From Rhodococcus spongiicola (GTDB lineage: Bacteria > Actinomycetota > Actinomycetes > Mycobacteriales > Mycobacteriaceae): a stretch of 64,000 bases of DNA. The translations under genes were made by a program, and so were the position numbers. The DNA lies in the NCBI RefSeq assembly GCF_004011835.1, contig NZ_RKLN01000001.1:434001-498000 (forward strand), given 5' to 3'. Under the pieces are notes generated by a model, which saw only the letters and a program-made list of their open reading frames with translations, searched no databases and was not told the DNA's origin. Shown piece by piece: positions 29,167 through 44,524 of this stretch. Position 1 is the stretch's first letter. Each line of letters opens with the position of its first letter.

Positions 29167-29179
29167 TTCTGCCCCTTCG

Positions 29180-30289
29180 TTACTCTGCCGGCACCCAAAC
29201 GACGTCGATTCCGTCGATTCCTCGTTCGTCAAGCAGGCGTTCGATCGCTTCCGCTGACTTCTCTTCAGCAACCCGCCACTCTATCGTCGCGTCCCCTCCG
29301 CTGGCTTCCACTGCGCGGATCTGACGTTGCGCTTGGTCTACAAGGCTTTCGTCGCCTTTCCACCAGGGTTGGAAATTGCCATCCTTGTCGAGGAACTGGT
29401 CATACCCGGGACCCTTAGCTTCGACTAGTGTCCCGGGCTCGTCATCTCCACCTGCTTCCCAACCGTCGAACTTGACACCTTCGACCTCGTACTCGGTGCC
29501 GGACGATGCGCCAGTGACCTGTTCCTCGTATGCCTTCGAGCGGTCGGAGACACCGTCCCGATTGACCTCAGCCCACTCCCCCGGCCCGTTGTCTGAGAGG
29601 AACTGTGAAGGGATGTGGGAGAGGATGTCTTCGATGGAAGCGATGCCGTCGAACTTGTCGATGAGGTAGGCGATGACAGCGGCACCGGTGACCACACCGG
29701 CTGCGACGAGCGCCCAGGCCGTGATCTCGACGGCTACACCGAGTCCAGCGATCGCGACCGGCAAGAACCCTCGAACGTTGCCGTTGGTGAGAGTCAGAAG
29801 TTCGATGGCCTGGTCGATCGCGGTGGCGGCGTCGGTGTCGGCTGTAGCGAGCGTTCCGAGGCCACTCGAGATTTCCTGCACCCACTCGTCGATGACGGCC
29901 TGATCGACGTCGCCGGAGCCGGGTGTGACCACCCAGTCGTCAGTGACGACGAGGCCCTCTGCTTCGGCGTATCGCGCTGTAGCGAGGAGTCGTTGTCGTG
30001 CGGTGTCGAGGTCCGCGATGGCGGTGATCCCGTTCTTGCGTAGCACGCGGAGGGCATCCGCGCGGTCGATGGCGTGGCCTCTGATCTGCGCCAATTTCTC
30101 GACAGCGGCGGCGTGCGCGTCTCCTGTCCATCCTCCGGTGTCGGGCAGGTTCGCCAAGCGCAGGTTGAGTGCTCCGAAATGGTCTTCGATCTGGTCGGCA
30201 AGGCCAGCGAGGGCTGAGAGTGCGTCATAGGGGACGTCGGGGTGCCAATTGGCTATCTGGTTCCGTCCGTAGCCCCCGGAAAGTTCCAT
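29180..30289 (-). CDS. Polymorphic toxin: WXG-like head, hydrophobic middle, Tox-REase-5-like nuclease
   Basis: A 369-residue protein. Residues 1-110 are helical with a W-x-G turn (GGWTGDAHAA, 53-60) like type VII substrates; 175-210 is hydrophobic (a membrane or translocation segment). Residues 265-369 look like the restriction-endonuclease-fold toxin Tox-REase-5: YEVEGVKFDGWE with Asp275, then GTLVEAKGPGYDQFL with Glu290-x-Lys292. This D...ExK set suggests metal-dependent DNA cleavage. It overlaps the small EspC-like gene upstream by one base (TGATG) and is followed by an immunity gene. It is probably exported by a type VII (ESX) system encoded elsewhere. Confidence 0.8.
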   Translation of the reverse strand: MELSGGYGRNQIANWHPDVPYDALSALAGLADQIEDHFGALNLRLANLPDTGGWTGDAHAAAVEKLAQIRGHAIDRADALRVLRKNGITAIADLDTARQRLLATARYAEAEGLVVTDDWVVTPGSGDVDQAVIDEWVQEISSGLGTLATADTDAATAIDQAIELLTLTNGNVRGFLPVAIAGLGVAVEITAWALVAAGVVTGAAVIAYLIDKFDGIASIEDILSHIPSQFLSDNGPGEWAEVNRDGVSDRSKAYEEQVTGASSGTEYEVEGVKFDGWEAGGDDEPGTLVEAKGPGYDQFLDKDGNFQPWWKGDESLVDQAQRQIRAVEASGGDATIEWRVAEEKSAEAIERLLDERGIDGIDVVWVPAE

Positions 30290-30591
30290 CAGCCGGGCTC
30301 GATCGCATTGAGGTTCGCTGTGGTGACATATTCGGTCGTCTCGTAATCATCGGCGGTGTCGGATAGGGCGGCGGTGGTCGCTTCGAGATGTTCGGTGAGT
30401 TCACCGAGCGTGACGGCAATGGCCGCATCTGCGTCGGAGAGTGCCCTGGCTGCGACTGATCCGGTCAGGTGCTCCGAGGCGCCGGCGAGGCGATCGATGG
30501 TGACCTCGGCAGCAAAGTAGTCGCGGGAATGAATGAACTCACTAGCGAGTGCGCGTAGTTGTGCCGGGTCGACTTCGAGCGGCGTACTCAT
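30289..30591 (-). CDS. Small EspC/WXG100-like type VII secretion partner
   Basis: A 100-residue, all-helical acidic protein from ATG 30591 with GGGGGATCC upstream. It begins LEVDPAQLRALASEFIHSRD and ends TADDYETTEYVTTANL, the pattern of actinobacterial type VII secretion target (EspC / DUF2580-type) proteins; YETTE near the end resembles the YxxxD/E export signal. It likely pairs with the N-terminal helical domain of the toxin and carries it to the ESX machine. It is the first gene of the three-gene cassette. Confidence 0.72.
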   Translation of the reverse strand: MSTPLEVDPAQLRALASEFIHSRDYFAAEVTIDRLAGASEHLTGSVAARALSDADAAIAVTLGELTEHLEATTAALSDTADDYETTEYVTTANLNAIEPG

Positions 30592-30825: not shown

Positions 30826-30853
30826 GTCAGGCCGCCATGGTCGGCGCGATGAC
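30826..30853. repeat. Right copy of the 28-bp direct repeat, inside the hsdR 3' end
   Basis: One mismatch to 27843-27870. It covers the last eight sense codons and stop of hsdR. The 234 bases between this and the EspC-like gene show no gene and must hold the cassette promoter. Confidence 0.85.
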
Positions 30854-33800
30854 CTCCATCTGCTCGATCACCAGCTTGATGGCCTCGGGCTGACGGTCCG
30901 GCGGGTAGCCGTGTCGAGTGAGTAGTCGCTTGATCTGCGATCGTAGCCGCGCCTTGACGTCCTCCCGGACGGTCCAGTCGGTGGATGCGTCGCGCCGCAT
31001 CACCGCGACGAGGTCACGGGCGATGTCGGCAAGCTTGCCCTCTCCCTGCTCCTCGACCGCAGACTCGTTCTGGGCGACAGCGTCGTAGAAGGCGAGTTCG
31101 TTCTCGTCCAGCGGCGGTGTGAACTGGCTTCCTCGATCAGATTCGGCGGCGACTTCTTTGGCCATCTCGACCAGCGCGGTGATCACCTCCGCGGAAGTCA
31201 GTTGGCTGTTGGTGTACTTGACCATCAACGCCTGCAGTCTCTCCGAGAATGCGCGCTGGCGGACGACGTTGTGCTTCGCCGCCTTCCGGGACTCGTCCGT
31301 GATCAGCTTTCGCATTGCCTCGATCGCGAGGTTCGGGTTCTTCGCTTGCTGGGCCCGACGGACGAAGTCGACGTTGATGTCCTTCAGCGACGGCTTCGGC
31401 ATGCCGGCCGCGTCGTAGATGTCTAGAACCTCACCGGACTCGACGGATGCCGCCATCAACTGGCGCAGCGCCCGCTGCACGTCCTCCGGTACCGCCTGGC
31501 CTCGTGCGTAGCGATCCTCGGCGTCAAACTTGGCCATGTAGACGCGAACTTCCTCGAAGAACTTCGCGACCGGTGCCTGCTCCCGCAGCGCCTCGTGGCT
31601 GCCACAGATCGCCCACACCCGAGACAGCTGCGACGCGAACTTGCGGTAACGAGCCGCGAGGGTCTCCTGCCCCTCACCCACCTGGTTCTCTGGATTCCGG
31701 GGATCACGCAGGTAGTTGACGGTCGCGTTGGCGGCGTCGAAATAGGCGCGGGGACCGGGCCTGTGCAGCTGCTCGCGCCAGTCGAATCCGTGCAGGATGT
31801 TCTCGATAATCTTGATGAGGTTCTTGGCGGTGTCGACCGCGGCACCGATGTCCTTGCCGATCGGCTTGTTCGCACGGTCGGCCTCGGTGTATTCAGCGAG
31901 CGCCTGCGTGAGATTGTCGGCGACGGGCGCGTAGGCGACGAGAAGCCCGTCCTGCTTGCCGCGGAAGGTCCGGTTGACGCGGGCGAGCGCCTGCATCAGC
32001 AGCGCACCCTTGAGCGGCCGGTCCAGGTACATCGTGTGCAGTGGCGGCGCGTCGAAACCGGTGAGCATCATGTCCTTGACGATGACCAGTTCGAGTTCGT
32101 CGTCGATGTCCTTGAGCCGCTTTTTGATCGCCGCGTTCTCGGAATCGCGCCGTACATGGTCGATGATCGGCGATGTGTCGCTAGGGTTGCCGGAGTAGAC
32201 GACCTTGATCTTTCCAGTGGAAAGATCGTCGCTGTGCCAGTCGGGGCGCAGCGCCACGATCTCTCGATACAGGTTGGCGCAGATCTCCCGGGTCGCACCG
32301 ACGATCATCGCCTTCCCCGCCGCAGCCGGGTTCTTCTCCGAGCCTACGAACGGGTTCATCGCCGCACGCCGCGCCTCCCAGTGCTCGACGAGATCGCCGG
32401 CGAGCTTCTTCAATCGGGTCGGCGCACCGTAGACCGCGTTGATGACGGCGACGCTCTTCTCGATTCGGTCGCGCTCGGTGTCGTCGAGGCCGAACGTCGC
32501 CTCATCCGCCGAAGCGTCAATGTCCTTCTCCGAGACGTCCTCGGCGAAAGACACTTTCACGAGCCGGCTCTCGAAGTAGACCGGGACGGTGGCACCGTCC
32601 TCGACGGCGCGGGTCAGGTCGTAGATGTCAATGTAGTCACCGAACACGTCTCGGGTGTTGCGGTCCTCGAACGAGATCGGGGTTCCGGTGAAGGCGATCA
32701 GCGTGGCGTGCGGCAGCGCGTCACGAAGGTGCCGCGCGTACCCGTCGAGGTTGTCGTAGTGGCTGCGGTGCGCTTCGTCAACCATGACGATGACGTTGCG
32801 GCGATCGGTCAGCAACGGATGGCTGGCGCCCGAATGCCGTTCGTCTGCGGTCCGCCCGAACTTCTGCAGGGTCGTGAAGTAGATGCCGCCCGTGGTGCGC
32901 CCGGACAGCTCCTGTCGCAGCTCCTCACGCTTGCGGATCTGCTTGGGCTGCTCCGGCAGCAACCGGGACCGCAGGAAGGTCTCGTAGAGCTGGCCGTCGA
33001 GCTCGGTGCGGTCGGTGATCACCACGATCGTCGGGTTGGCCAGCTGCGGGTGCCGGATCACCTGATTCGCGTACAGCTCCATTTCCATGGACTTGCCCGA
33101 GCCCTGGGTGTGCCACACGACGCCGGCCTTGCCGCTGCTCCCGACGGCTTGCGCCGTGGAGCCCACTGCCTTGGTGACGGCAAAGTACTGGTGTGGCTTG
33201 GCGACTCGCTTGAGCAGTCCGTTCTCGTCGTGGTCGAACGCGGTGAAACTGCGTAAGAGCTGCAGGAAGCGTTCCTGATTGAACAGGCCGTGGAGGGCGG
33301 TGTCGAGCGGTGTCGCACCGTCGAGGGTGTCGGTGGTGACGGGTTTGCCGTAGTCGTCAACGTTCCACGGAGAGTAGTGGTTGAACGGGGTGAACGGTGT
33401 CCCGTAACGAGCGGTGATGCCGTCCGATATCAGGTTGAAGACAACGAACCTGAAGGCGAGCGGGAACTCCTTCAGGTAGGTGCCCAACTGCGCATGCGCC
33501 TGGACCAGCCCGGCATTCTCTGCGCCGGCCTTCTTGAGTTCGACGATGCTGACCGGCATCCCGTTCATATACAGGACGATGTCGAATCGCCGACGGTGAT
33601 CGCCCTTGACGATGGTCACCTGGTCGACCGCGAGCCAGTCGTTCTGGTCCGGGTCCTGAGACAGCAATCGGATGGTGGGCGTGACCTCCTCACCCGCGTC
33701 GTCGACGTAAGAGATCTTGCGCAGTCCCTCGGTGAGGAAGCCGTGGATCGTCTCGTTCTCGGCGATGGCGTCGCTCGACCGAGCATTCGCGATCTCAGCC

Positions 33801-34021
33801 ACGGCCTGATCGACGACGTGTTCGGGGAGGTCCTTGTTGAACCGCACGATCGCCTGCCTCAGCCGCGGCACGATCAGCAGCTCGTCGAGTGACGCACGCT
33901 CTTCGTTGCCCGGTGCGATTTCCGTCCCGCTGAGGTGCTTCCACCCCAGTTCCCCGAGGACGTCCAGAGCCATCTGCTCCCAATCGTTCTCGGTCAATCC
34001 ACGGCTCTCGATCACTGCCAT
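30827..34021 (-). CDS. hsdR: Type I restriction enzyme subunit R
   Basis: A 1064-residue restriction and translocation subunit. The N-terminal PD-(D/E)xK nuclease (about 10-200) has Asp147 in RRFDIVLYM and Glu161-x-Lys163 in VSIVELKK. The SF2 motor follows: Walker A TQGSGKS (305-311), motif II DEAH (415-418) in VMVDEAHRSHY, and SAT-like FTGTPI. A C-terminal helical domain binds HsdM. ATG 34021 has AGGGAGGG upstream; the frame is open further up. It is a separate unit, 4.4 kb from hsdS and 5.7 kb from hsdM, and shares an operator-like palindrome with them. Its stop lies in the 28-bp repeat. Confidence 0.95.
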   Translation of the reverse strand: MAVIESRGLTENDWEQMALDVLGELGWKHLSGTEIAPGNEERASLDELLIVPRLRQAIVRFNKDLPEHVVDQAVAEIANARSSDAIAENETIHGFLTEGLRKISYVDDAGEEVTPTIRLLSQDPDQNDWLAVDQVTIVKGDHRRRFDIVLYMNGMPVSIVELKKAGAENAGLVQAHAQLGTYLKEFPLAFRFVVFNLISDGITARYGTPFTPFNHYSPWNVDDYGKPVTTDTLDGATPLDTALHGLFNQERFLQLLRSFTAFDHDENGLLKRVAKPHQYFAVTKAVGSTAQAVGSSGKAGVVWHTQGSGKSMEMELYANQVIRHPQLANPTIVVITDRTELDGQLYETFLRSRLLPEQPKQIRKREELRQELSGRTTGGIYFTTLQKFGRTADERHSGASHPLLTDRRNVIVMVDEAHRSHYDNLDGYARHLRDALPHATLIAFTGTPISFEDRNTRDVFGDYIDIYDLTRAVEDGATVPVYFESRLVKVSFAEDVSEKDIDASADEATFGLDDTERDRIEKSVAVINAVYGAPTRLKKLAGDLVEHWEARRAAMNPFVGSEKNPAAAGKAMIVGATREICANLYREIVALRPDWHSDDLSTGKIKVVYSGNPSDTSPIIDHVRRDSENAAIKKRLKDIDDELELVIVKDMMLTGFDAPPLHTMYLDRPLKGALLMQALARVNRTFRGKQDGLLVAYAPVADNLTQALAEYTEADRANKPIGKDIGAAVDTAKNLIKIIENILHGFDWREQLHRPGPRAYFDAANATVNYLRDPRNPENQVGEGQETLAARYRKFASQLSRVWAICGSHEALREQAPVAKFFEEVRVYMAKFDAEDRYARGQAVPEDVQRALRQLMAASVESGEVLDIYDAAGMPKPSLKDINVDFVRRAQQAKNPNLAIEAMRKLITDESRKAAKHNVVRQRAFSERLQALMVKYTNSQLTSAEVITALVEMAKEVAAESDRGSQFTPPLDENELAFYDAVAQNESAVEEQGEGKLADIARDLVAVMRRDASTDWTVREDVKARLRSQIKRLLTRHGYPPDRQPEAIKLVIEQMEVIAPTMAA

Positions 34022-34099
34022 GCCCTCCCTCGAGTCATCACAACACGGCAAACAGTACCGGCCGGACACAAGCGGGTCTGACGGCAGCGGCAGACCAGT

Positions 34100-34117
34100 C
34101 GATAACCCCGGTTATCG
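34100..34117. promoter_or_regulatory. Palindrome CGATAACC-NN-GGTTATCG, site 1
   Basis: An 18-bp palindrome with 8-bp arms sits 79 bases upstream of hsdR and 39 bases upstream of the divergent gene at 34157. The same arms and spacing recur at 43508-43525 between the other two divergent units of the island. It has the size and symmetry of a dimeric-repressor operator. Confidence 0.6.
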
Positions 34118-34156
34118 GCGCAGCACTTGGCTCTGCATCCGAGTCGTTCGCAGGAT

Positions 34157-34696
34157 ATGGACATCACTTCGACCGAACCAGGGAGTCTGTCTGTGACTGT
34201 GCCTATCGACCCCAACCTTTCACCCGTTGCTCCAGTCGAGCCCGAGCAGCGGACGCCGGCTCGGCGCCCCTTCTGGCTGGGTGTGGGTGTCGGTGTCGTC
34301 GCAGCGGCGACCGTCGGTGGTATCGCGTTCGGCGCGGTCGCCGGTGTCCGCGCTCTGAGCGCGCCGGCGACGTTCGAGATCACCGGCACGCTCACGCTGA
34401 ACGGCAAAGCGACCACGACCGGACTGCCGACCGGATTCTCGTGCGCCGGCACCAGCGGTTACGACGACCTGTCTCCCAATGCCGCAGTGAAGGTTTCCGA
34501 CGAGTCCGGAACCCTGCTCGCGAAGGGCCACATGATCGGAAGCGTCGGAGGTTCCGGCTATTGCATCTTTGACTTCGCCGTCACCGACGTGCCCCGAGGC
34601 AGCAAGTTCTACGAGGTCGAGATCGCCCGCCGTGGCGGCCTCTCCTACACCGAAGTCGAAGCCGAAGAAGGTCTGTCGCTGTCGATCGGCGACTGA
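34157..34696 (+). CDS. Membrane-anchored protein of unknown function
   Basis: A 179-residue protein: a cytoplasmic Pro-rich segment (1-38), one transmembrane helix (about 40-68, [20 protein letters not shown]) and an external beta-rich domain (75-179) that starts [13 protein letters not shown] and has two cysteines (in FSCAGTSGY and GYCIFDF), possibly a disulfide. I do not recognise a named family. It starts a two-gene unit with the DUF4352 gene 41 bases downstream and diverges from hsdR across the palindrome. Confidence 0.65.
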
Positions 34697-34737
34697 CCAC
34701 CATCCCTCAACCCGTTCCATTTGAAAAGGACATCAGC

Positions 34738-35400
34738 ATGACCATTCCTCAGCAGCCCTTCCAGGGCCAGCCCGTGCCCCAAGCTCCTCAGCAGCCGATC
34801 AACAAGAAGTCCAAGAAGTGGCCGTGGATCGTCGGCGTGATCGCCGCATTCATCGTGATCGGCGCGGTCTCCGGCGGAGAGGACGACAAGAAGTCGACGG
34901 ACGCAGCGTCCCCTGCCGAGGTCGCCGCTGTCGACGCGGTCTCGTCCGCCGCCCCTGCACCAGCCGCCCCGGCTCCGGCACCGGCTCCGGCTCCGAAGCC
35001 GGTGCCCGGGATGGGCACGCCCGTGCGAGACGGGAAGTTCGAGTTCGTCGTCACCGATGTCGTCACAGGGCTGAGCACAGTCGGGGACAACCCGTTCCTC
35101 ACCGAGCAGGCACAGGGCCAGTTCGTGGTCGTGACGATGACGGTGCAGAACACGTCCGACAAGCCGAAGGGACTGAGCCCGGACAACCAGGAGATGTATG
35201 ACACGCAGGGCCGCAAGTTCACCGCCGACACGATGGCCGGCATCGCCCTCGATTCGGAAGTGTCGATCTGGGACGAGATCAACCCCGGCAACAAGGTGAC
35301 GATGAAGGTCGTCTACGACATGCCGGCCGACGCCGTGCCGGCCGAAATGGAACTGCACGACTCGATGTTCTCGGGCGGTACTCGCGTCGCCCTCAAGTAA
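34738..35400 (+). CDS. DUF4352 membrane-anchored protein
   Basis: A 220-residue protein. A short cytoplasmic part rich in Gln and Pro is followed by a transmembrane helix (about 28-45, [17 protein letters not shown]), a low-complexity Ala-Pro linker (78-90) and a DUF4352 immunoglobulin-like domain (95-220; [51 protein letters not shown]). DUF4352 domains lie outside the membrane and are thought to bind partners or ligands. It shares an operon with the gene before it and ends at the strong terminator at 35482-35523. Confidence 0.8.
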
Positions 35401-35481
35401 AGACTGGTCCTGGCGGGCGCGAGCGCTGGGGGGTGCACGCGCCCGCCAGGACCTCTTCGCAACACCCGGCGTCAGAGGGTG

Positions 35482-35523
35482 GGGCCTCGCCGAGGTGCCG
35501 ATTTCGGCACCTCGGCGAGGCCC
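35482..35523. terminator. Bidirectional terminator between convergent units
   Basis: A 20-bp perfect stem (starting GGGCCTCGCCGAGG at 35482) with a 2-base TT loop, followed by TTGT. It separates the plus-strand DUF4352 gene from the convergent end of the hsdM-hsdS operon at 35609 and can serve both directions. Confidence 0.85.
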
Positions 35524-35608
35524 TTGTCGTGTGCCGGATTCCGGCGTGTCGAGGCAGTGTGTCGTCGCCGGAAACCAGTCCGCCCTCCACGTCCGCGCGC
35601 GGGGACAC

Positions 35609-36505
35609 TTAGGTCGACGTGTTCCAGCGTTGCTTGAGGTCGTCCACGGTCGGGGTGGATGTCTGACGCTTCCCAGCGCCGGGCTTCGACGACTGCTTGC
35701 GCGGTCGCTGAGACCGCGGCGGTGTCATACCACGTTCTCGGCGCCGGGCAGCCAGCGCATACATCGCTTCGCGGCCTTCGGCACGAATCTTGGCCACACC
35801 CGGCACCTCGCTCGCTGCGGACACCGATTGTTCGAGTGGACGTGCGTTGAGCGCCGCGAGTGCCCTTCTTGCAGAAGCGACCTCGCGTTCGAGATGAAGG
35901 CATTCGGCACAGCACCATCGGTCCTCGAACCGCTCGAATCTGCCTTTCGGGGACTGGCATACACCGCACCTCTTGGGCTGAGGCATCTTCGACTGTTTGG
36001 CTGCCGGCGCCGATCGTGGCTGCGCACTCTTCTCCGGTACCGGGTCGGACTGCGCAGCCGCCGGAGGCGCTGACGGGGTCGGCTCAGTAGGCCCAGGTGG
36101 TGTGAGACTGGCAAGTTCCGCTCGGAGAAGCGAAATCTGCTCGCGCTTGACGACAATCAGATCGGAGAGTTCCGGCGCAAGACCTGCGGGCGATTCTTCG
36201 AGGTAGCGAAGTTCGTTCTGGGCCCGCGAGATCTCGGTCTCGAGATCGGTGAACCGCCGCCGTTTGGCAATCGCCTTCTCACACGCATCGAGGCCACCGT
36301 CCGGCAGGGTTGACTTGCCGAAGGCCGCCATCGCCAACTCGGTACGGGCCCGATTCCAATCCTTGACCAGCTGCTGGAGGTCGACCTCGAGGGATTCTTC
36401 TTCCCGGACGAGTTCGAGCGCGTACTCGAGTTCGTCGGCCAGTTTCTGCGCTGCCGCCCGCGCTTGCTGGAGTAGGACGTCGAGCTTGTCAGTGGGCGTC
36501 GTCAA
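35609..36505 (-). CDS. Coiled-coil and zinc-ribbon protein of unknown function
   Basis: A 298-residue protein from TTG 36505 behind GAGGGAGA; the frame is open further up without likely start signals. Residues 1-135 are strongly helical with heptads (LLQQARAAAQKLADELEYAL; ISRAQNELRYLEES), then a Pro/Ala linker, a likely zinc ribbon CGVC-x15-CAEC (about 185-207), another helix (REVASARRALAAL) and a basic tail. I recognise no family. It is the last gene of the operon begun by the M-like protein. Its layout mirrors the protein at 18060-18788. Confidence 0.6.
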   Translation of the reverse strand: MTTPTDKLDVLLQQARAAAQKLADELEYALELVREEESLEVDLQQLVKDWNRARTELAMAAFGKSTLPDGGLDACEKAIAKRRRFTDLETEISRAQNELRYLEESPAGLAPELSDLIVVKREQISLLRAELASLTPPGPTEPTPSAPPAAAQSDPVPEKSAQPRSAPAAKQSKMPQPKRCGVCQSPKGRFERFEDRWCCAECLHLEREVASARRALAALNARPLEQSVSAASEVPGVAKIRAEGREAMYALAARRRERGMTPPRSQRPRKQSSKPGAGKRQTSTPTVDDLKQRWNTST

Positions 36506-36543
36506 TTCGGGTCTCCCTCGCAATGGATGCGGTCGATGCTGGG

Positions 36544-37299
36544 TCAAGAGCAGTCGCCGGGCTCGCCGTGCTTGACGACGGAGAGCATCGCATCGCCCTC
36601 GTCGATCGGGATTCCCGGCGCCGGGCTCTGCTCGACGACCACCCAGTTGCGGTCGGATATCTGCATGCGTCCCTTGCCCGTCGCGTCCTGACTGCGAGAG
36701 AAGAAGACACCGGCTTCCTGAATCGTGTCCTGAGCGGCCTGCAGATTCATACACGTAACGCTTGGCATGAACACCTGTGCCGACGGCGTCGAGGCGGAGG
36801 CTGACGACTGTTCGGCGTTCGGGCCCGGTTCGGCGGGGGCAACCGGCATAGCCGCGGACGGAACAGCGGGCATCGGTGTTGCGGTGGTGCTAGACGGCGA
36901 CGCGGATGACGCGTCGTCAAGGCCATCACTGATGTCGCCGATGATGCCGATCAGGACCAGCGCAGCCGCCATGAGCGATGCGGCGACGACACCTTTCCGG
37001 ATGGGCCTCTTTGCCGGCGGCTCCGGTGGGGGCGCGAATGCTGCCGAGGCATCCCCGGCCAGGAACGCCTCGTGGCCGGCCTGCGCCCTGGCGGCCAGGG
37101 CATCGTTCTCGGCCTTGGCCCGAGCGAAATGGTCGCGGATCGGCCGGCCGATAGCGAGGTACCACAGCCCCGCGGCGAACAGCAGGAAGATCACGACGGA
37201 GCTGAGGTCGAGTTGGACCAGGCTCACGATCGCCAACCAGGTGCACACACCGGCGAAGAAGCCGGCGACGACGCGGAGATATGGACGGATGATGTTCAT
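36544..37299 (-). CDS. Membrane protein with C-terminal PASTA-like domain
   Basis: A 251-residue protein from ATG 37299 behind AGGAAGATC. Two N-terminal transmembrane helices (about 9-45) precede a cytoplasmic helical stretch (50-95) and a third helix (about 104-122, GVVAASLMAAALVLIGIIG), then a Ser/Ala/Pro linker. The last 75 residues form a PASTA-type fold: VFMPSVTCMNLQAAQDTIQEAG and VVEQSPAPGIPIDEGDAMLSV. PASTA domains bind peptidoglycan fragments outside the cell. The ATG overlaps the PLD gene stop by 4 bases. A cell-wall sensor inside a restriction operon is unexpected. Confidence 0.75.
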   Translation of the reverse strand: MNIIRPYLRVVAGFFAGVCTWLAIVSLVQLDLSSVVIFLLFAAGLWYLAIGRPIRDHFARAKAENDALAARAQAGHEAFLAGDASAAFAPPPEPPAKRPIRKGVVAASLMAAALVLIGIIGDISDGLDDASSASPSSTTATPMPAVPSAAMPVAPAEPGPNAEQSSASASTPSAQVFMPSVTCMNLQAAQDTIQEAGVFFSRSQDATGKGRMQISDRNWVVVEQSPAPGIPIDEGDAMLSVVKHGEPGDCS

Positions 37300-38396
37300 G
37301 ATCTTCCTGCTTTTGGATGCAGTTGGAGCGGACTGGTCTCCTTGTATTCGAGATCGGGCCAGAGACCTAGCAGCGCATCGACAAAGCGTTCTCGTACACA
37401 CTTTCCCCGGAAGTCCGGCCTCTCCCCCAGAGGCTCGAACGCCGATTCGATGTCAGGCACCGATACCGCGAACTCGGATCTCTGAACTAGGAGGTAGTAA
37501 TACCGGCGTGGTGGAAAGGCAAACGAGTCCAGATAGGTGTGGACGAGCCTGCCGGGTTCGCTGACGCCCCCGTTTCGGCGCGGACTACCGGTCTTGGTGC
37601 CGTCCACGAGGACGATGTACTCGTCGGTGTCGTACTTCACCGACTCCTCACCGTCCCGACTGAGTATGTCGATCTGGTAGTCAAGGCTGTCGACGATCCC
37701 GTACTTCTCGGAAAGCTCGTCGGCCCTGGCCTCCGCTTCTTCTGTCAGCTTGACGTCCCGGTCCACCGGGCACAGGTGTATGACAGTCGGGCGCGACGAC
37801 CTCTCGGCTCCGATGTCCGGCTCGGCGAGTTCTTCGTCATCGGGCTCGATCCCCGCTTCGTCATCGTCGTCGACGTCCGGTGACGCGGTTCGATCGATTC
37901 CGAACTGCTCGATGAGATGCTCGAGGTCGGCAAGCTTGAGTGGTGTTGCCGCGCTCTTCCATTCGATCAGCGCAGCACGAACCTCATCCAGGCACTCTCC
38001 ATCGGCGAGGGCGACCGATTCGAACAGTCTCGTTGCCGACGACTGCGACAGGTTCGCCGATCCGATCACTGCGAACGCGTCGTGTTCGGTGCCGACCGCT
38101 TCGGCCAAGATCATCTTGGCGTGCAATCCTTTCAGTGAGTACACCTTGACACCGGCTTTGACCCAGGCAAGCAAGACGCGCGGGTCTGTCGAGCCGGCCC
38201 GCACCGTCCTCCGGTCGGCGTCGACGATGATTGCGGATCCTCGTTGAAGATCCAGGACAGTTGACGCTTCACCGCCTACATAGGCGACGGCAGCGGTGAT
38301 CGACCTTGAATAGGGCTTGAGCAGAGGAGTCAGTTCGTCCCAGATGTTCTGGCCGGCAATGACCCGTGCGGTGCGGTCACCAAGTACATCGGACAT
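37296..38396 (-). CDS. Phospholipase D-like nuclease-family protein
   Basis: A 366-residue protein. Residues 12-135 form one PLD-like domain: the catalytic H-x-K is His92-Lys94 in LKGLHAKMILAE, followed by GSANLSQSS (112-120) with Asn115 and Glu126. One HKD motif per chain implies a dimer, as in Nuc/BfiI-type nucleases. The centre is acidic (DDDDEAGIEPDDEELAEPD, about 176-194) and the C-terminal half (200-366) is unknown. It follows hsdS by 62 bases and overlaps the PASTA gene by 4 bases. A nuclease acting with the restriction system is a natural guess; phospholipase activity is less likely for a cytoplasmic protein. Confidence 0.8.
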   Translation of the reverse strand: MSDVLGDRTARVIAGQNIWDELTPLLKPYSRSITAAVAYVGGEASTVLDLQRGSAIIVDADRRTVRAGSTDPRVLLAWVKAGVKVYSLKGLHAKMILAEAVGTEHDAFAVIGSANLSQSSATRLFESVALADGECLDEVRAALIEWKSAATPLKLADLEHLIEQFGIDRTASPDVDDDDEAGIEPDDEELAEPDIGAERSSRPTVIHLCPVDRDVKLTEEAEARADELSEKYGIVDSLDYQIDILSRDGEESVKYDTDEYIVLVDGTKTGSPRRNGGVSEPGRLVHTYLDSFAFPPRRYYYLLVQRSEFAVSVPDIESAFEPLGERPDFRGKCVRERFVDALLGLWPDLEYKETSPLQLHPKAGRS

Positions 38397-38458
38397 TCAC
38401 TGGCCTGCTTTCTGCTGAATCTCGGGGACCCGATCGACGCCTGTGATGCAGCTGTCGG

Positions 38459-39706
38459 TCACAGCACCGCCTCCACTTCGCGCTCCGCGTCGCGGACGCG
38501 GAGTTCGCCGGCCATCAGGCGTGGGAGGAGCGCATCGCGCGTGGCGGCGAGGGTTCGGGACTCGTCACGTGCGACACCGAGGCGCTTGACGAGTGGGACC
38601 GCGATTGCACCCCAGCGGTTCAGTGCTGTCGGTTCGACCGAGCAAAGTGGGTATTCAGTCAAGTCGTTTGCGGACAACCGCTGTCGGCCAGATGTCCCCA
38701 CCATATGCCGGATCGCGAAAGTTCGGAACCGTTCACTCGTCGCAAGGAAATACGATAGCTCCGAGGGTATTCCGGATTTAGATCGGATCACAATGTACTC
38801 AGTGGAACCAATCGCGACCTCCCCTTCGTCCAAGAAGTCGACGTAGCCAGTCTTCCTGTTCTGCAGACACGGCGTAATTCGGGCCAGAAGTGTGTCGCCG
38901 TTCATGAAACGCGCTCCACCCTTCGCCGGACGCGATTCCCAATCCTCGACCATCATCGAACTGGTCGGAAGCTTCTGCATGTCAACGTAGGTCGGTTCCG
39001 ATTCTGTGACACGCGGACATACCGGATTGAGGTCGAAGTACTCAGTGAGCGCGCTCGCGCGTTCACCGTCGACCCCTCTATCGAAGCCCAGGAGTTGAAA
39101 CTCCGCTGCAAGCACCGCCTCCGCCACGCCAGCGAGCTTGCGGTTCGCGGCAATCTTGTCGTCGAGGGCGCCGAGGACCTCGGCGATGGCGCGCTGCTCA
39201 CCGATCTCCGGCAACGTGATTGGTATGCCCCTCAACGAGCGAAGAGGCTGACCAATACCTGGCGTACCGACCGTGGAAGCGCGATCCAACAATTCCTGTC
39301 GACCACGGCCTCTGAAGTAGTAGAGAACATACTTGGGATCGGCAATTGCCTTGTCACAACTGAGCTTCATCATGCTGGATGACAACAGGCATTCCCTACC
39401 TCCCATCAGACCGACAGCGCCAATGGCACCTCGATGCGGGAACACCAAGTCATCCGGTCGCACGATCGCGCTTGAGAGCGAGCTCGCGACTTCCTCGGAA
39501 ACGAAGACAGGGTCATCGAGGCTTATATACGGTGCATCCTTGATGTCTTGACCACGGATGACCGGAACACCCTCTGTCGTGTACATGTCCGACTTCAATC
39601 TTGAACCGAATGGGCCAATCGCGACCGATCGAGCACCAGACGCCGCTATCGCGTCAATGACCGTTCGCCGCCACCCGTGCGGGAGATCAATCTGCCCTTG
39701 ACTCAC
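38459..39706 (-). CDS. hsdS: Type I restriction-modification specificity subunit
   Basis: A 415-residue HsdS with two target-recognition domains (about 10-165 and 210-385), each followed by a conserved helix. The first spacer helix is seen in LPEIGEQRAIAEVLGALDDK and the second near VARDESRTLAATRDALLPRL with LMAGELRV. HsdS sets the bipartite DNA target for methylation and cleavage. TRD1 DNA is visibly poorer in GC than neighbours (around 39200-39560), in keeping with exchange of recognition domains between strains. The ATG overlaps the hsdM stop by 4 bases. Confidence 0.93.
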   Translation of the reverse strand: MSQGQIDLPHGWRRTVIDAIAASGARSVAIGPFGSRLKSDMYTTEGVPVIRGQDIKDAPYISLDDPVFVSEEVASSLSSAIVRPDDLVFPHRGAIGAVGLMGGRECLLSSSMMKLSCDKAIADPKYVLYYFRGRGRQELLDRASTVGTPGIGQPLRSLRGIPITLPEIGEQRAIAEVLGALDDKIAANRKLAGVAEAVLAAEFQLLGFDRGVDGERASALTEYFDLNPVCPRVTESEPTYVDMQKLPTSSMMVEDWESRPAKGGARFMNGDTLLARITPCLQNRKTGYVDFLDEGEVAIGSTEYIVIRSKSGIPSELSYFLATSERFRTFAIRHMVGTSGRQRLSANDLTEYPLCSVEPTALNRWGAIAVPLVKRLGVARDESRTLAATRDALLPRLMAGELRVRDAEREVEAVL

Positions 39707-41325
39707 GACACCCTCCCCAACTGCTCACGCACTACAGCCTGCAGTCGCGCCGACTCGTCGAACTGCTCGAAGAGCTCCTTCTTCAACCGCTCCAACTTCT
39801 CGGCGATCGGCTCCCCATCGTCTTCGATCGGCGGAGCACCGACGTAGCGACCCGGCGTGAGCGCGTAGTCGGTTTCCTTGATCTCCGCGAGTGTGGCCGA
39901 GTAGCAGAATCCGGGCTCGTCTGCGTACTCGACTCCCTTTGCGGATTCCGTTCCGCGCCAGGCGTGGAAAGTGCCCGAGATCTTGGCGATGTCATCGTCA
40001 CTCAACGCTCGTTCGGCGCGGTCGACCATGTAGCCCAGGTTCCGCGCGTCGATGAAGAGCGCTTGGCCCTGTCGGTCGATCTTGCCCTTCGGTCCGACAG
40101 CTTTGTCCTTCGCGAAGAACCACACGCACACCGGGATACCGGTGCTGCGGAACAACTGCGTCGGCAGAGCGATCATGCACGACACCAGGTCGGCCTCGAC
40201 CAACCTGGCTCGAATGTCGCCCTCGCCACTGGAGTTCGACGACATGGACCCGTTCGCCATAACCACACCTGCACTGCCCCGCGCGGACAGCTTGGAGATG
40301 ATGTGCTGGATCCACGCGTAGTTGGCGTTACCAGCCGGCGGCACACCGAACTTCCAGCGCTTGTCATCTTCCTTGCGGGTCCAGTCCTTGATGTTGAACG
40401 GTGGGTTGGCAAGGATGTAGTCCGCCAACAGATCCGGATGTTTGTCCTGTGCGAACGTGTCCTCCCACCGGTCACCCAGGTTGCCGGTGATGCCGTGGAT
40501 AGCGAGGTTCATCTTCGCCATCCGCCACGTGCGCTCGTTCAGCTCCTGCCCGTAGACGGCCACCTCGCTCGGATTGCCGCCGTGCCGTTCTATGAACTTC
40601 TCCGTCTGCACGAACATGCCACCCGAACCGCAGCACGGGTCGTACACCCGGCCGCTGTACGGCTCGAGCATCTCCACCAGTACCCGCACCACGCTGGCGG
40701 GGGTGTAGAACTCGCCGCCCCGCTTACCCTCGGCGCGGGCGAACTTCTCTAGGAAGTACTCGTACACCTCACCGAGCAGATCCCGGGCCTTCGTGGCGCC
40801 GTGGCCGGTGAAGCGCGTGTCGTTGAACAGGTCGATCAACTCGCCGAGTCGGCGCTGGTCGACGTTGTCCCGGTTGAAGATCGTCGGAAGCGTGCCCGCG
40901 AGAGTCGAATTGGCCTCCATGAGCGCTCGCATCGCGGCATTGACCAGTTGGCCTACCGTCTGCCCCTCGACACCGGCCGTTTCCTGGATACCCTTTGCGT
41001 TCTGCGCCAGGAAGCCCCACCGCGCCGTCTCCGGCACCCAGAACACGCTGCTGCCCAGGTACTCGTCCTCGTCGTCGATCAACGTCGCGATCTGGTCCTC
41101 GTTCAGCCCGTCCGCGACCAGCTCCGCACGGATCTGCTCCCGCCGCTCATCGAACGCGTCGGAAACGTACTTGAGGAACACCAGACCCAAGATCACATCC
41201 TTGTACTGGGAAGCATCCATGGAGCCGCGCAACTTGTCCGCGGCCTTCCACAGCGTGTCCTTGAGTTCCTTCATCGTCGACGGCGCGGAGACCGTGTCCT
41301 TCGTGGTCTTTTTCCTCGGGGGCAT
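39703..41325 (-). CDS. hsdM: Type I restriction-modification methyltransferase subunit
   Basis: A 540-residue N6-adenine methyltransferase. The N-terminal HsdM_N domain (15-140) is followed by the Rossmann methylase with motif I DPCCGSGGMF (229-238), the X motif region GGEFYTPASVV and the catalytic motif IV NPPF (307-310). Methylation protects host DNA and HsdM2-HsdS forms the core enzyme. Start ATG 41325 lies two bases after the stop of the large M-like gene, so the two are co-translated. Intact motifs indicate an active methylase. Confidence 0.95.
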   Translation of the reverse strand: MPPRKKTTKDTVSAPSTMKELKDTLWKAADKLRGSMDASQYKDVILGLVFLKYVSDAFDERREQIRAELVADGLNEDQIATLIDDEDEYLGSSVFWVPETARWGFLAQNAKGIQETAGVEGQTVGQLVNAAMRALMEANSTLAGTLPTIFNRDNVDQRRLGELIDLFNDTRFTGHGATKARDLLGEVYEYFLEKFARAEGKRGGEFYTPASVVRVLVEMLEPYSGRVYDPCCGSGGMFVQTEKFIERHGGNPSEVAVYGQELNERTWRMAKMNLAIHGITGNLGDRWEDTFAQDKHPDLLADYILANPPFNIKDWTRKEDDKRWKFGVPPAGNANYAWIQHIISKLSARGSAGVVMANGSMSSNSSGEGDIRARLVEADLVSCMIALPTQLFRSTGIPVCVWFFAKDKAVGPKGKIDRQGQALFIDARNLGYMVDRAERALSDDDIAKISGTFHAWRGTESAKGVEYADEPGFCYSATLAEIKETDYALTPGRYVGAPPIEDDGEPIAEKLERLKKELFEQFDESARLQAVVREQLGRVS

Positions 41326-41327
41326 CG

Positions 41328-43406
41328 TCAGCCTTTCTCTGTGACGGTCTCTGGTGCCGGTGCGACGGTGAGCGCGCCGTGCGCCACACCGTCCACCAAT
41401 GTGGTGGTGAGGTCTTCGAGTGTGTCGAGCAGTGTGCGCGCGGTGGCGCGGCGGGTACGTAGGTCGGCGAGGGCTGCGGTGATCGCGGGCACCTCGTCTG
41501 GGTGCACCCGTGGGATCTCCCACTTCCGCCACGCCGATCCGTCACGGATCGCACCGGATGGCTTCTCTGTCGTTACTCGTGAACGGATATGTCGGGCAAC
41601 GAGTTCTGGGATCAGCCCCGAACGTTGTGGGTCGCTGATTCGCAGGATCCGCGCCGGTGACTGCACCACGGACGCTCCCTCGTGATCGACGAGCGTGCCG
41701 AACGACGAACCGACGCAGAAGACGATGTCACCCGGCTCGGTGTAGCGCGCACTCGCGTACTTCGCGGTCAGCGTCAGTCGGTCGATCCCCCGCTCGCCGA
41801 TAGCGCAGCGCCCGGTCACCTCGTCCACGCCGATCACCGGCACCGTGCCGTCCAACTCGATGTCGTCGGGGTCGATGCGGCACCCCGACACCACACGCAT
41901 CTCCTTCGTTTTCGCCAACTCCCCGGCCGTGAGCATTCGCCGGGCGTCGGACTCCCGGTACTCGACCCGCAGCCCGAGCCCTACCTCGATCCCGACGGCG
42001 GCGATGTCGGCGTCACCCACCAGTTCGAGCACCCGTGCGGCGGTCTCCGCCGGTATCGGCCGCAGACGGTGGACGCGGGGCAATGCGACGAGTGAACCGG
42101 AGTCCGCGAGAAGATCGGACGTCCGACGCGCATGACCGAATCGGAACGCGTGCGCCCGCACTGCCCGCGATGATCCCATCGCCGCCGCGACATCGGCCAT
42201 CACGCCGTCGATCACGTCGTCGGACAACTCGGCGGCGCCGAGATCGGCCAGCATCATGTGACGTTCCGCTGCCGGCACGGAATAGTCGACCGCGCCGAGG
42301 ACCCATAGCGCCATCGACGAGCCCGGCCGCGCCGGCAACAGCCCCTCCGGCAACCGGATCGCGGCACGCAGATGGCCGGACCGGAGCAACCCGGAACGGA
42401 TCGACGCGCACTCGCGATCACGCAGCGGATCGACCAGCACGGCGGCCGGACCGATGATCACCGCACGCTGACCCGGACCCATCTGCATGGCGATGTTGTC
42501 GATCTCGCCCAGGATCTCGGTGTCGGTGTAACCAATGGTCGTCGGCGACGGATACTGCGTCACGAACATCCCCGGCCGTTCGAGGCTGAACCCGTCCTCG
42601 AAGCCGCTCTCCGGGGATGGAATTCGCACCGCCCGGTGCACGGCCAGCCGCCGCCGCGCACGCCGCGCGCCGGCGGTGTCCGAGGCTCTGGTCATGACGG
42701 TCAGGTCGCTGAACTCTGGGAGCGAATCGCGCACGGCGACGAGTAGGTCCGTGCTCTCCGGTGCCGGGTCGACGAACAGTGGATGCTCCCCCTCGGCCAG
42801 CGCCACACACAACCGCGCACAGAGCGTGCGGGCGCCGGCGCCGAGGGTGGTGTCGGACAGGGCCGACCACCTTTCACGGAACCTTCTCGACATCAGCGCC
42901 TCGAACGCATGCGCCGGGGTGAAAGCGGCGTCGGCCATCTGATCCACGTGGGATGCAACCACGGCGAGCTGTTCGCCCAGCGCGTCGGCCTCGGAGTAGA
43001 GGAACTCGTCGTCCGGGTCGAGTTCGTCGACCTCGTCGAGCAGGTCGTCCGGGTCGAATTCACCCAGCTGCTCCCCCAGCAGGGCCTTGACGCACAGCAG
43101 CGCAGTGATGCCGTCGGCAACCACCACCGGATCGACCCCGGAGGCGTGCTCGAACGCCGCATACATCGCCAGGTCGCGAGCGAACGAGTCACTGTTGCCC
43201 AACCCGCGCGCTTGCACCCAGTCGGCGACTTCGTGCGCGTCGAACTTCTCGATGCGGCCGTCAACGGTGACCGGGTTCGGAAAGGGCTGATCGCCGCTAC
43301 GGGATCGCCTCACCCACGTCGTGACGACCGGGCGCTGCACCTTCGCGAGGGTGGCGATGTCTCGCTTGGTGAGGAGGAGCGTCGGCAACGCGGTCGTCTG
43401 CTGCAC
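41328..43406 (-). CDS. HTH / inactive N6-methylase-like / target-recognition fusion protein
   Basis: A 692-residue protein from GTG 43406 (GGAGGGGG upstream; another GTG at 43433 is possible). Residues about 12-65 look like an AlpA/MerR-type helix-turn-helix (TKRDIATLAKVQRPVVTTW, then FDAHEVADWV). Residues 150-375 follow the N6-methylase plan (FTPAHAFEAL; LRAAIRLPEGLLPARPGSS), but motif I reads DPAPES instead of DPxxGSG and motif IV reads QYPSP instead of NPPF, so SAM binding and catalysis are probably lost. Residues 490-680 resemble an HsdS recognition domain (GDIVFCVGSSFGTLVDHEG) with a closing helix. It opens the operon, two bases before hsdM. Confidence 0.7.
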   Translation of the reverse strand: MQQTTALPTLLLTKRDIATLAKVQRPVVTTWVRRSRSGDQPFPNPVTVDGRIEKFDAHEVADWVQARGLGNSDSFARDLAMYAAFEHASGVDPVVVADGITALLCVKALLGEQLGEFDPDDLLDEVDELDPDDEFLYSEADALGEQLAVVASHVDQMADAAFTPAHAFEALMSRRFRERWSALSDTTLGAGARTLCARLCVALAEGEHPLFVDPAPESTDLLVAVRDSLPEFSDLTVMTRASDTAGARRARRRLAVHRAVRIPSPESGFEDGFSLERPGMFVTQYPSPTTIGYTDTEILGEIDNIAMQMGPGQRAVIIGPAAVLVDPLRDRECASIRSGLLRSGHLRAAIRLPEGLLPARPGSSMALWVLGAVDYSVPAAERHMMLADLGAAELSDDVIDGVMADVAAAMGSSRAVRAHAFRFGHARRTSDLLADSGSLVALPRVHRLRPIPAETAARVLELVGDADIAAVGIEVGLGLRVEYRESDARRMLTAGELAKTKEMRVVSGCRIDPDDIELDGTVPVIGVDEVTGRCAIGERGIDRLTLTAKYASARYTEPGDIVFCVGSSFGTLVDHEGASVVQSPARILRISDPQRSGLIPELVARHIRSRVTTEKPSGAIRDGSAWRKWEIPRVHPDEVPAITAALADLRTRRATARTLLDTLEDLTTTLVDGVAHGALTVAPAPETVTEKG

Positions 43407-43504
43407 GCGACATACCCCCTCCGAAAAGCCCACGGCCCCGATTGGTGGCCGCCCGAGAAATCTAGCCGATCAAAGGATCCGACAGAACCCCTAGGTCACG
43501 CATG

Positions 43505-43528
43505 GCGCGATAACCCGGGTTATCGCGC
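43505..43528. promoter_or_regulatory. Palindrome site 2 (24 bp, core CGATAACC-NN-GGTTATCG)
   Basis: A perfect 24-bp palindrome whose central 18 bases (43508-43525) have the same arms and 2-bp spacer as 34100-34117. It lies 99 bases upstream of the M-like gene start and 72 bases upstream of the divergent RNase H-fold gene. The shared site suggests one regulator for both halves of the island. Confidence 0.65.
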
Positions 43529-43600
43529 TCTTTGCAGACTCTGTCGGATGGGCCAGGCACTGTGTCCAACATCCGGTCAATCAATGTGAAGGAGGCCCCG

Positions 43601-44524
43601 TTGCTCGCCGTCATCCACATCCGCCGATACTCGAGTACGCAAGACGACCTGGTCCGCGCCGTCGCCGCATGGCAGGTGAACGGCGCGGTTTCGACCCGGC
43701 AGTTCGAGTATGCCGACGCAACCGATGCGTCCTACTACCGTGCCGGTCTCGACGCCTTCGCGCTGCTCCTCGATATGTCGACGGTGACGTCGGAACCTAT
43801 CCTCCTCCACATCACCGACAACAAGCTCCGCAACGAAATCGACGCCGTCGTCGAGTCTTTCCCGTCGGTGACGATCGTCGACGTCGCTCGCGGCGCGGTA
43901 CTGGATCTCACTCACGCCGCGCTCGACACCCTCGTTTCGCACCACCGCTACCTCGTGGCGGCCGACGAGGAACTCGAGCGCGCGGCGGCAGAGGAAGAAC
44001 GTGCGCGTGTGGCGGCGGAAGAGGAACGAGAGCGTGAGCGGATCACCGCGCTGCCGGTGCTGACCGTCGCCACCGACGCGTCCAAGTCACGCCGCCGGGG
44101 AGTCGGCGTGGCCTGTGTCAGTGAGGACGGCGTCCGGCACCAGAAGATGGTCCCGAACGTCACGACGGTGCTCGAGGGTGAGTTGCTCGCGATCGAGCTC
44201 GCCATCGACCGCTTCGCCGAGCGGCGGCTCCACATCCTCACCGACAGTCAGAGAGCCTTGCAGCACCTCGGTGTCCTGCAGACTAAACGGTGGCCGCTGC
44301 GCCTGACCGTCGGCGAAAAGGCCGCCGTGGCCCGTATCCAGGAGGCGATGCAGGGCCGCAAGATCCGGCTGTCGTGGGTTCGCGGACACGACGGACACCT
44401 GCTCAACGAGACCGCTCACCGGCTCGCCATGGCGGTGCGCCGCGCCCACGAGGCCCGCATCCCTGCGGAGACCCGGCGGGCCATCGCCGAGCAGATCGTC
44501 GAACCGCTGCGTGTTGCGGCCTGA
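43601..44524 (+). CDS. RNase H-fold protein with coiled coil
   Basis: A 307-residue protein from TTG 43601, set by AAGGAGG. Residues 1-120 form an unknown alpha/beta domain, 122-148 a charged coiled coil (EEERARVAAEEERERER) and 152-285 a ribonuclease HI-like domain. Catalytic residues Asp159 (VATDAS), Glu194 (LEGELLAIELA) and Asp215 (LTDSQ) are in place; the fourth position, Asp in the usual GHxGxxxNExxDxLA, is His273 here. Activity on RNA-DNA hybrids may be weak or altered. It diverges from the M-like gene across palindrome site 2 and so belongs to the island. Confidence 0.75.
   Translation: MLAVIHIRRYSSTQDDLVRAVAAWQVNGAVSTRQFEYADATDASYYRAGLDAFALLLDMSTVTSEPILLHITDNKLRNEIDAVVESFPSVTIVDVARGAVLDLTHAALDTLVSHHRYLVAADEELERAAAEEERARVAAEEERERERITALPVLTVATDASKSRRRGVGVACVSEDGVRHQKMVPNVTTVLEGELLAIELAIDRFAERRLHILTDSQRALQHLGVLQTKRWPLRLTVGEKAAVARIQEAMQGRKIRLSWVRGHDGHLLNETAHRLAMAVRRAHEARIPAETRRAIAEQIVEPLRVAA

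What the first reader, a model, noticed from the sequence alone, without database searches (positions are those of the whole stretch)
30827..44524. Type I restriction-modification island with shared operators and non-standard subunits
hsdR, hsdM and hsdS are split into two minus-strand units. The hsdM-hsdS unit also carries an HTH/methylase-like/recognition fusion, a one-motif PLD protein, a PASTA membrane protein and a zinc-ribbon coiled-coil protein, joined by 2-62 base gaps or 4-base overlaps. Two envelope-type genes and an RNase H-fold gene diverge from the two units. The tight packing suggests one system. A defence device joining DNA restriction with envelope sensing would be new to me.
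Basis: partly seen in the sequence, partly recalled or inferred. Interest (0 to 1): 0.85.

Follow-up and report, generated by a model that had tools for sequence, protein, structure and literature searches.

The report
Type I restriction island with pseudo-methylase switch
A bacterial DNA-restriction island carries the same control site at each of its two paired promoters, and probably a regulator built from worn-out restriction-enzyme parts, so that restriction genes, an RNase H-like gene and exported proteins seem to be switched together.

Summary
The genes are as described. hsdR, hsdM and hsdS look intact. The gene before hsdM, here called HMS, is an HTH + an HsdM-like domain without catalytic motifs + half an HsdS. 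Of 57 HMS loci, 50 have it upstream with at most one mismatch; shuffles give 0.02. It lies midway between two back-to-back promoters at fixed distance from -10-like boxes. All 17 complete window-type hsdR genes examined have it, facing a membrane-anchored or DUF4352 gene. The 21 best DUF4352 hits among 201 genomes are the 21 window-type HMS genomes. RNase H faces HMS in 19 of 21; PASTA, PLD and zinc-ribbon genes are in 15, 6 and 5. Best reading: HMS is a dedicated autoregulator, more likely activator than repressor, of a two-promoter regulon joining type I restriction to exported proteins. Envelope sensing, DNA binding, direction of control and defence are untested. Nearest published: RptR and type II HTH-methylase regulators.

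The parts
30827..34021 (-). hsdR, type I restriction subunit (1064 aa)
   Evidence: TIGR00348 481 bits, Pfam HSDR_N, SWI2_SNF2, T1RH-like_C; start by codon-usage caller
34099..34118 (.). operator 2, TCGATAACCCCGGTTATCGG, between hsdR and the exported-protein gene
   Evidence: same place in all 17 complete window-type hsdR promoters examined
34193..34696 (+). membrane-anchored exported-protein gene (no family)
   Evidence: one hydrophobic N-terminal segment; homologue found in 13 of 21 window-type genomes by tblastn; no Pfam hit
34738..35400 (+). membrane-anchored DUF4352 protein (220 aa)
   Evidence: PF11611 6.8e-27; hydrophobic segment 26-49; top 21 hits = the 21 window-type genomes
35609..36505 (-). 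zinc-ribbon, coiled-coil protein (298 aa)
   Evidence: CxxC pairs read by eye; in 5 of 21 genomes
36544..37299 (-). membrane protein with C-terminal PASTA-like domain (251 aa)
   Evidence: PASTA 9.7e-5, just under cut-off; three hydrophobic segments
37296..38396 (-). PLD-like protein with one HxK motif (366 aa)
   Evidence: PLDc_2 6.3e-5, under cut-off; motif read by eye
38459..39706 (-). hsdS, specificity subunit (415 aa)
   Evidence: Methylase_S 1.2e-6; PADLOC Specificity_I
39703..41325 (-). hsdM, type I methylase subunit (540 aa)
   Evidence: N6_Mtase 2.3e-110, HsdM_N; catalytic motifs DPCCGSGG and NPPF read by eye
41328..43406 (-). HMS: HTH + HsdM-like domain without catalytic motifs + half-HsdS; likely regulator (692 aa)
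   Evidence: no family; profile finds HsdM structures; C-terminus aligns to HsdS; motifs lost
43505..43528 (.). operator 1, perfect palindrome GCGCGATAACCC/GGGTTATCGCGC, between HMS and the RNase H gene
   Evidence: HMS family: 50 of 57 loci with at most one mismatch
43562..44524 (+). RNase H-fold gene, divergent from HMS (320 aa)
   Evidence: RNase_H 4.4e-13; divergent from HMS in 19 of 21 window-type genomes

Best explanation
A type I restriction-modification island run by its own regulator. HMS is a retired M/half-S protein: an N-terminal HTH, an HsdM-like body without catalytic motifs and one HsdS-like half. Probably as a dimer, it binds the 16-bp operator midway between two back-to-back promoters. 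The window has two such bidirectional promoters: HMS-hsdM-hsdS-PLD-PASTA-zinc-ribbon opposite RNase H, and hsdR opposite the exported-protein/DUF4352 pair. HMS thus sets its own level and switches modification, restriction and exported proteins together. Fixed spacing to -10-like boxes, an operator centred near -53 and weak -35 boxes favour activation with positive feedback (about 60 to 40 over joint repression). HsdMSR does ordinary type I modification and restriction; the other genes are co-regulated helpers of unknown action. Shown by sequence: gene order, operators, spacing, co-occurrence, loss of motifs. Inferred: dimer, binding, direction of control, defence.
For: HMS stands directly before hsdM in 33 of 35 loci. 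Operator upstream of HMS: 37 of 57 strict, 50 of 57 with at most one mismatch, 53 of 57 by either rule; shuffles 0.02. Only two sites in the own genome. 17 of 17 complete window-type hsdR promoters, 16 strict. TAnnnT 48-51 bases from the operator start in 44 of 52 HMS promoters (shuffled mean 1.55, maximum 6); AnnnT at the mirrored place in 42 of 52 (shuffled mean 6.4, maximum 14); 28 of 32 also hold among HMS under 45% identity, whose spacers are only 27% identical. HMS keeps an HTH and a conserved TRD (62-78%) where hsdS of the four closest loci is only about 30% identical. DUF4352 in 21 of 21.
Against: No binding or expression data. The complete mirrored -10 (AnnnTA) is in only 2 of 52 HMS and 0 of 19 hsdR promoters; only the weaker AnnnT is common. 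-35 matches are weak but above chance (11 of 44 with 4 or more of 6, 4 expected), so activator dependence is not proved. L069 has no site; L042 has it only inside a called start, L071 and L073 only before a preceding gene. The bare motif is also in 61 of 171 family genomes without full-length HMS, and 68 of 1199 other genes in the loci have a strict site upstream, divergent partners not separated. DUF4352 hits fall off smoothly (228 to 219 bits). No HMS structure was obtained.
Confidence: 0.68

Rival explanations
1. HMS is a repressor (RptR-like): bound to the operator it keeps both bidirectional promoters low and is released on infection or when free HsdM/HsdS compete for its half-S arm.
For: One operator at both promoter pairs. 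A dimer of so large a protein could cover both -35 regions (inference). RptR and the HTH-methylases Ecl18kI and SsoII are described as repressors of restriction genes.
Against: The operator lies about 33 bases before the -10-like box rather than over it, at fixed spacing, with weak -35 boxes.
Confidence: 0.3
2. HMS is a structural subunit: a dead M/half-S partner that joins HsdM or HsdS and changes target or activity, while another protein binds the operator.
For: It keeps HsdM-like and HsdS-like parts, is almost always next to hsdM, and L071-L073 keep methylase motifs.
Against: It carries an HTH that is its best-kept part in the three most distant relatives compared (44-46%), and the operator goes with HMS. 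I did not scan all neighbours for another HTH protein present in all loci.
Confidence: 0.15
3. Chance neighbours in a defence hotspot: the operator serves only the hsd genes and the other genes are passengers.
For: The stretch between window 25777 and 46451 varies in the genus, with remnants of PASTA (G011, G013) and of the exported-protein gene (G009) beside absent HMS. PASTA, PLD and zinc-ribbon genes come and go.
Against: The operator is shared with divergent RNase H and exported-protein/DUF4352 genes, also where their module lies on another contig than HMS (G012, G302, G860, G892), and DUF4352 co-occurs 21 of 21.
Confidence: 0.12

Closest known systems
RptR, repressor of type I restriction islands (PMC12255303; abstract, passages and section 25 seen)
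   Same: A regulator encoded first in a type I hsd locus, with a palindromic site in its own promoter conserved across genomes, and a slot between hsdS and hsdR for other defence genes.
   Different: RptR is a 79-aa helical protein of Gammaproteobacteria with repeated TAGCTA sites over the -10 box. HMS is about 690 aa, made of HTH + HsdM-like + half-HsdS, in Actinomycetota, with one 16-bp site between two divergent promoters.
HTH-fused type II methylases M.SsoII, M.Ecl18kI, M.EcoRII (review PMC12707154, passages seen; PMC3978073 and PMC6100179, search listing only)
   Same: N-terminal HTH on a methylase-derived protein, binding site between divergent modification and restriction promoters.
   Different: Those are active single-chain cytosine or type II enzymes. 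HMS derives from adenine HsdM with a half-HsdS and has lost the catalytic motifs in the window.
C proteins, including one beside a Mycoplasma gallisepticum type I hsd locus (review PMC12707154, passages seen)
   Same: Autoregulation of a restriction operon from a symmetric operator upstream of the promoter; activation by C proteins of type II loci.
   Different: C proteins are separate small HTH proteins, not built from M and S parts (recalled, apart from the review's passages).
Type I hsd loci with extra genes between hsdS and hsdR (RptR paper section 25; others recalled)
   Same: Relatives carry changing genes in that slot: YhcG/DUF1016, Schlafen-type, PLD.
   Different: In window-type loci hsdR has its own operator-bearing promoter, shared with exported-protein genes.

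Membership tests
Type I restriction-modification system | HsdR, HsdM and HsdS encoded together | tested here: met
   hsdM-hsdS adjacent, hsdR 4.4 kb away in the same island
Type I restriction-modification system | intact methylase and nuclease/helicase motifs | tested here: met
   Pfam domains over cut-off; HsdM DPCCGSGG and NPPF, HsdR DEAH read by eye in the translations
Type I restriction-modification system | sequence-specific modification and ATP-dependent restriction | not testable with these tools
   needs methylome and phage or plasmid assays
HTH-fused regulatory methylase (SsoII/Ecl18kI kind) | N-terminal HTH on a methylase-derived protein with its site between divergent restriction promoters | tested here: met
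   HTH_17 in relative L071 under its cut-off
HTH-fused regulatory methylase (SsoII/Ecl18kI kind) | catalytically active methylase domain | tested here: not met
   window lacks motifs I and IV; of 36 members 7 match motif I, 3 match motif IV and 2 match both
RptR | 79-aa helical protein with TAGCTA sites | tested here: not met
   HMS is 692 aa and its site is GATAAN6TTATC
DISARM | DrmC and DISARM partners over cut-off | tested here: not met
   PLD protein scores 16 bits to DrmC, cut-off 133; no DISARM model among the listed PADLOC hits of ten island and flanking proteins (HsdS and HsdM lists cut at 25)
MADS (mad1-8) | MAD proteins over their NCBIfam cut-offs | tested here: not met
   HsdM to MAD2 41.5 bits, cut-off 720; HsdS to MAD5 14.4 bits, cut-off 400; PADLOC mad2 matches HsdM at 162 bits, as a fellow methylase

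The most novel reading that the evidence does not exclude
HMS is a type I methylase turned transcription switch that reads its operator as type I enzymes read DNA: GATAAN6TTATC is a split, symmetric site of the kind expected for a dimer of half-HsdS, so the old recognition domain, not only the HTH, reads it. By sharing HsdM- and HsdS-like surfaces it would compete for partners and so sense how much free modification enzyme the cell has. Through two bidirectional promoters it would fire restriction, an RNase H-like enzyme and exported proteins as one response.
Probability: 0.2. Interest if true: 0.85.

Novelty: new variant of a known kind. Interest (0 to 1): 0.66.

Why it matters
Control of type I restriction systems is poorly known; the dedicated regulators I saw in print are RptR and a Mycoplasma C protein. 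This would be a regulator built from the restriction enzyme's own parts, with an operator that can be tested at once in many genera. The operator also gives a sequence-based way to tell which neighbours belong to a defence system: here it ties DUF4352, a membrane-anchored protein and RNase H to restriction, while PLD, PASTA and zinc-ribbon genes ride in the operon of some lineages only.

Tried and rejected
Rejected: DISARM and MADS membership. Rejected: PLD, PASTA and zinc-ribbon as core parts. Rejected: an hsdM start at 41532; the codon-usage caller puts it at 41325. Inconclusive: whether HTH or TRD reads the operator; residues that follow the C or G variant of the site are spread over the whole protein and confounded by ancestry. 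The outer repeats ATCCGACAGA at 43477 and 43540 are exact, but such matches with one mismatch allowed are at chance frequency in the window. Five HTH-methylases of genus g88 (L136-L138, L140, L141; inferred Streptomyces because contig G732:C2 has the length of NZ_CP101138.1) sit in other gene settings and show no GATAA-type palindrome upstream. The genome-contig scan gave one locus. Plasmids: 5 HMS records annotated 'hypothetical protein', of which the two opened hold HMS-M-S-R. Phages: one partial match. Literature, listings seen only: aimed at such a regulator or gene set and none of the titles listed described it, apart from RptR as the nearest; one search held 84 papers of which 10 were listed; (2,295 papers, 12 listed) was too broad; one search was background on HTH-methylases. 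The 'Zn' query was out of frame; zinc-ribbon counts come. The HMS structure job had not finished, so no fold search was run.

Rows dropped before counts: L010 (same contig as L115); L178 (same genome as L124) from the HMS counts and later; HMS matches of 60 bits or less (L070 among them) from then on; seven HMS loci without an N6 site of at most one mismatch (L042, L047, L048, L056, L069, L071, L073) from the spacing counts. Of 52 labelled hsdR genes 19 had a site and entered the spacing counts.
Full report
What is there. The window lies in a 3.97-Mb genome. Its nearest named relative here is Rhodococcus marinonascens (HMS 79%), so the order is Mycobacteriales (recalled). hsdR, hsdM and hsdS match their families. 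The gene upstream of hsdM, called HMS here, matches no family in Pfam, PADLOC or NCBIfam, but the profile of 36 relatives finds HsdM structures (3lkd 3.6e-9, EcoKI M 2.9e-5, EcoR124II M 7.8e-5), and the C-terminal part aligns with HsdS over 126 columns (probability 89%, E 2e-6, 19% identity). Relative L071 has N6_Mtase over its cut-off and HTH_17 under its cut-off. In the window motif I reads DPAPESTDLL and motif IV is not found; of 36 members, 7 match motif I, 3 match motif IV, and L071 and L073 match both.

HMS is a family. At E 0.001 it was found in 5 of 14 genus genomes, 37 of 397 order genomes and 34 of 201 family genomes. Of the 34, 21 are 47-100% identical over nearly the whole length ('window-type'), 9 more are 29-38% identical over most of it, and 4 are short matches. 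In 35 loci HMS stands directly before hsdM in 33; L047 and L048 have an amidase gene between. Outside the window-type the usual order is HMS-hsdM-hsdS-(slot)-hsdR. Slot and divergent side carry changing genes: YhcG/DUF1016 nuclease, a Schlafen-type protein, an SMC-like ATPase, a coiled-coil protein with a PD-(D/E)XK-like motif (by eye; no Pfam hit). In the four closest loci HsdM is 89-92% and HMS 63-79% identical, while the best long HsdS match is 30-31%; the HMS TRD is 62-78% identical. So HsdS changes target while HMS, TRD included, does not.

The operator. A perfect 24-bp palindrome lies between HMS and RNase H and a copy between hsdR and the exported-protein gene. They are the only two in the genome with 2 mismatches allowed. 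Of 57 HMS loci, 37 have a strict site (N4-N7 or inverted) from 400 bp upstream to 60 bp inside the called start, and 50 have GATAAN6TTATC with at most one mismatch; 53 meet one rule or the other; simulated sequences give 0.02 for either. L047 and L048 have an N5 form; L056 and L057 an inverted one. Of the four without, L042 has the site inside a probably miscalled start, L071 and L073 have it before the preceding gene, and L069 has none. As a check, 68 of 1199 other genes in these loci have a strict site upstream, divergent partners included and not separated. Consensus from 52 promoters: YGATAAS-N4-STTATCR.

Two bidirectional promoters. A -10-like TAnnnT begins 48-51 bases after the operator start in 44 of 52 HMS promoters (shuffled mean 1.55, maximum 6) and 11 of 19 hsdR promoters (0.7, maximum 4). 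On the other side AnnnT, read from that strand, lies at the mirrored place in 42 of 52 (shuffled mean 6.4, maximum 14) and 17 of 19 (2.1, maximum 6). The full mirrored hexamer is rare: 2 of 52 and 0 of 19. Among 32 loci with HMS under 45% identity, 28 have the right-hand box and 23 the left-hand one, although the spacers are only 27% identical. The operator is thus centred between back-to-back promoters, about 53 bases before the starts predicted from the boxes. -35 matches are weak but above chance (11 of 44 with 4 or more of 6, 4 expected). This favours an activator that touches RNA polymerase on both sides; it does not prove one.

Which neighbours belong. In the 21 window-type genomes RNase H is divergent from HMS in 19, not found in the fetched stretch of G828 and G888; G263 has two small genes between and G805 a broken-looking copy. 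DUF4352 is in 21 of 21: the 21 best of the hits in 201 genomes are these genomes, though the score step to the next is small (228 to 219 bits). The exported-protein gene was recognised in 13. All 17 complete hsdR genes carry the operator, 16 strictly, and face the exported-protein gene (11) or DUF4352 (6); in G011 the site lies inside the called start of DUF4352. G860 and G920 were not counted because hsdR is cut by the stretch, and the hsdR regions of G828 and G888 were not fetched. In G012, G302, G860 and G892 the DUF4352 module is on another contig than HMS and still has the operator; these are drafts, so contig breaks may be the cause. PASTA is in 15 of 21 fetched sets and, full length, in 7 genomes without HMS. 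PLD is in 6 and zinc-ribbon in 5. RNase H homologues of 149 bits or more without HMS: G005, G846 and G856, the last with a broken PASTA beside it, like a scar; weaker RNase H matches are common (86 of 201 genomes have any). The bare motif GATAAN6TTATC is in 27 of 30 family genomes with HMS over most of its length and in 61 of 171 others, so alone it is not diagnostic.

The site. All 14 genus genomes have a close homologue (84% or more) of the CoA-ligase gene at window 46451. In nine of them fetched at that place, eight lacking HMS and G011 having it elsewhere, the stretch from window gene 25777 to 46451 varies, from nearly empty (G007) to remnants of PASTA (G013, G011) or of the exported-protein gene (G009). 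The island comes and goes.

Mechanism. HMS and HsdM are the constant genes, and HMS has the HTH; the simplest reading is that HMS binds the operator and sets the level of the whole system. Positive feedback would resemble C proteins; repression would resemble RptR (PMC12255303) or M.SsoII and Ecl18kI (PMC12707154). Loss of motifs suggests that it no longer methylates. What it senses is unknown; competition with HsdM or HsdS for partners is possible because it keeps both kinds of surface. The exported proteins and RNase H should be made together with HsdM and HsdR; what they do is not known.

Novelty. Restriction regulators, HTH-fused methylases and extra genes in hsd loci are known kinds. A catalytically dead M/half-S regulator with a symmetric two-promoter operator in a type I system was not among the titles listed in my searches (open-licence library only). 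I call it a new variant of a known kind.

Noticed in passing
window 28465-30591 (-): Downstream of hsdR: a protein with a WXG100-like start and a Tox-REase-5 domain (29180-30289), a small gene before it and an Imm52-like gene after it, which looks like a toxin-immunity cassette.
   Followed up: partly
window 35406-35453 and 35482-35523: Two long inverted repeats (19 and 20 bp) between the convergent ends of DUF4352 and the zinc-ribbon gene, perhaps a two-way terminator; no T-tailed terminator was found by the pattern scan.
   Followed up: partly
L049:12485-13951, L059:11307-12728 and five other loci: A coiled-coil protein of about 470 aa (402-488) with a GD...E(A/M)(K/T)-like motif stands divergent to HMS where the window has RNase H; no Pfam hit for the two members scanned.
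   Followed up: partly
L136-L138: HTH-methylase relatives with intact motif I beside a protein kinase and a MazG-domain gene, a different gene set (kinase and MazG scanned in L136 only).
   Followed up: partly
L071:3750-9308 and L073: HMS members with both methylase motifs, preceded by a GGDEF-EAL protein gene (scanned in L071) with the operator between.
   Followed up: no
window 43562-44524: The RNase H proteins carry D or H at the fourth catalytic position, and the N-terminal half looks by eye like a second, worn RNase H fold.
   Followed up: no
L047 and L048: An amidase gene sits between HMS and hsdM, and an extra N5 operator lies before the amidase-hsdM unit.
   Followed up: no
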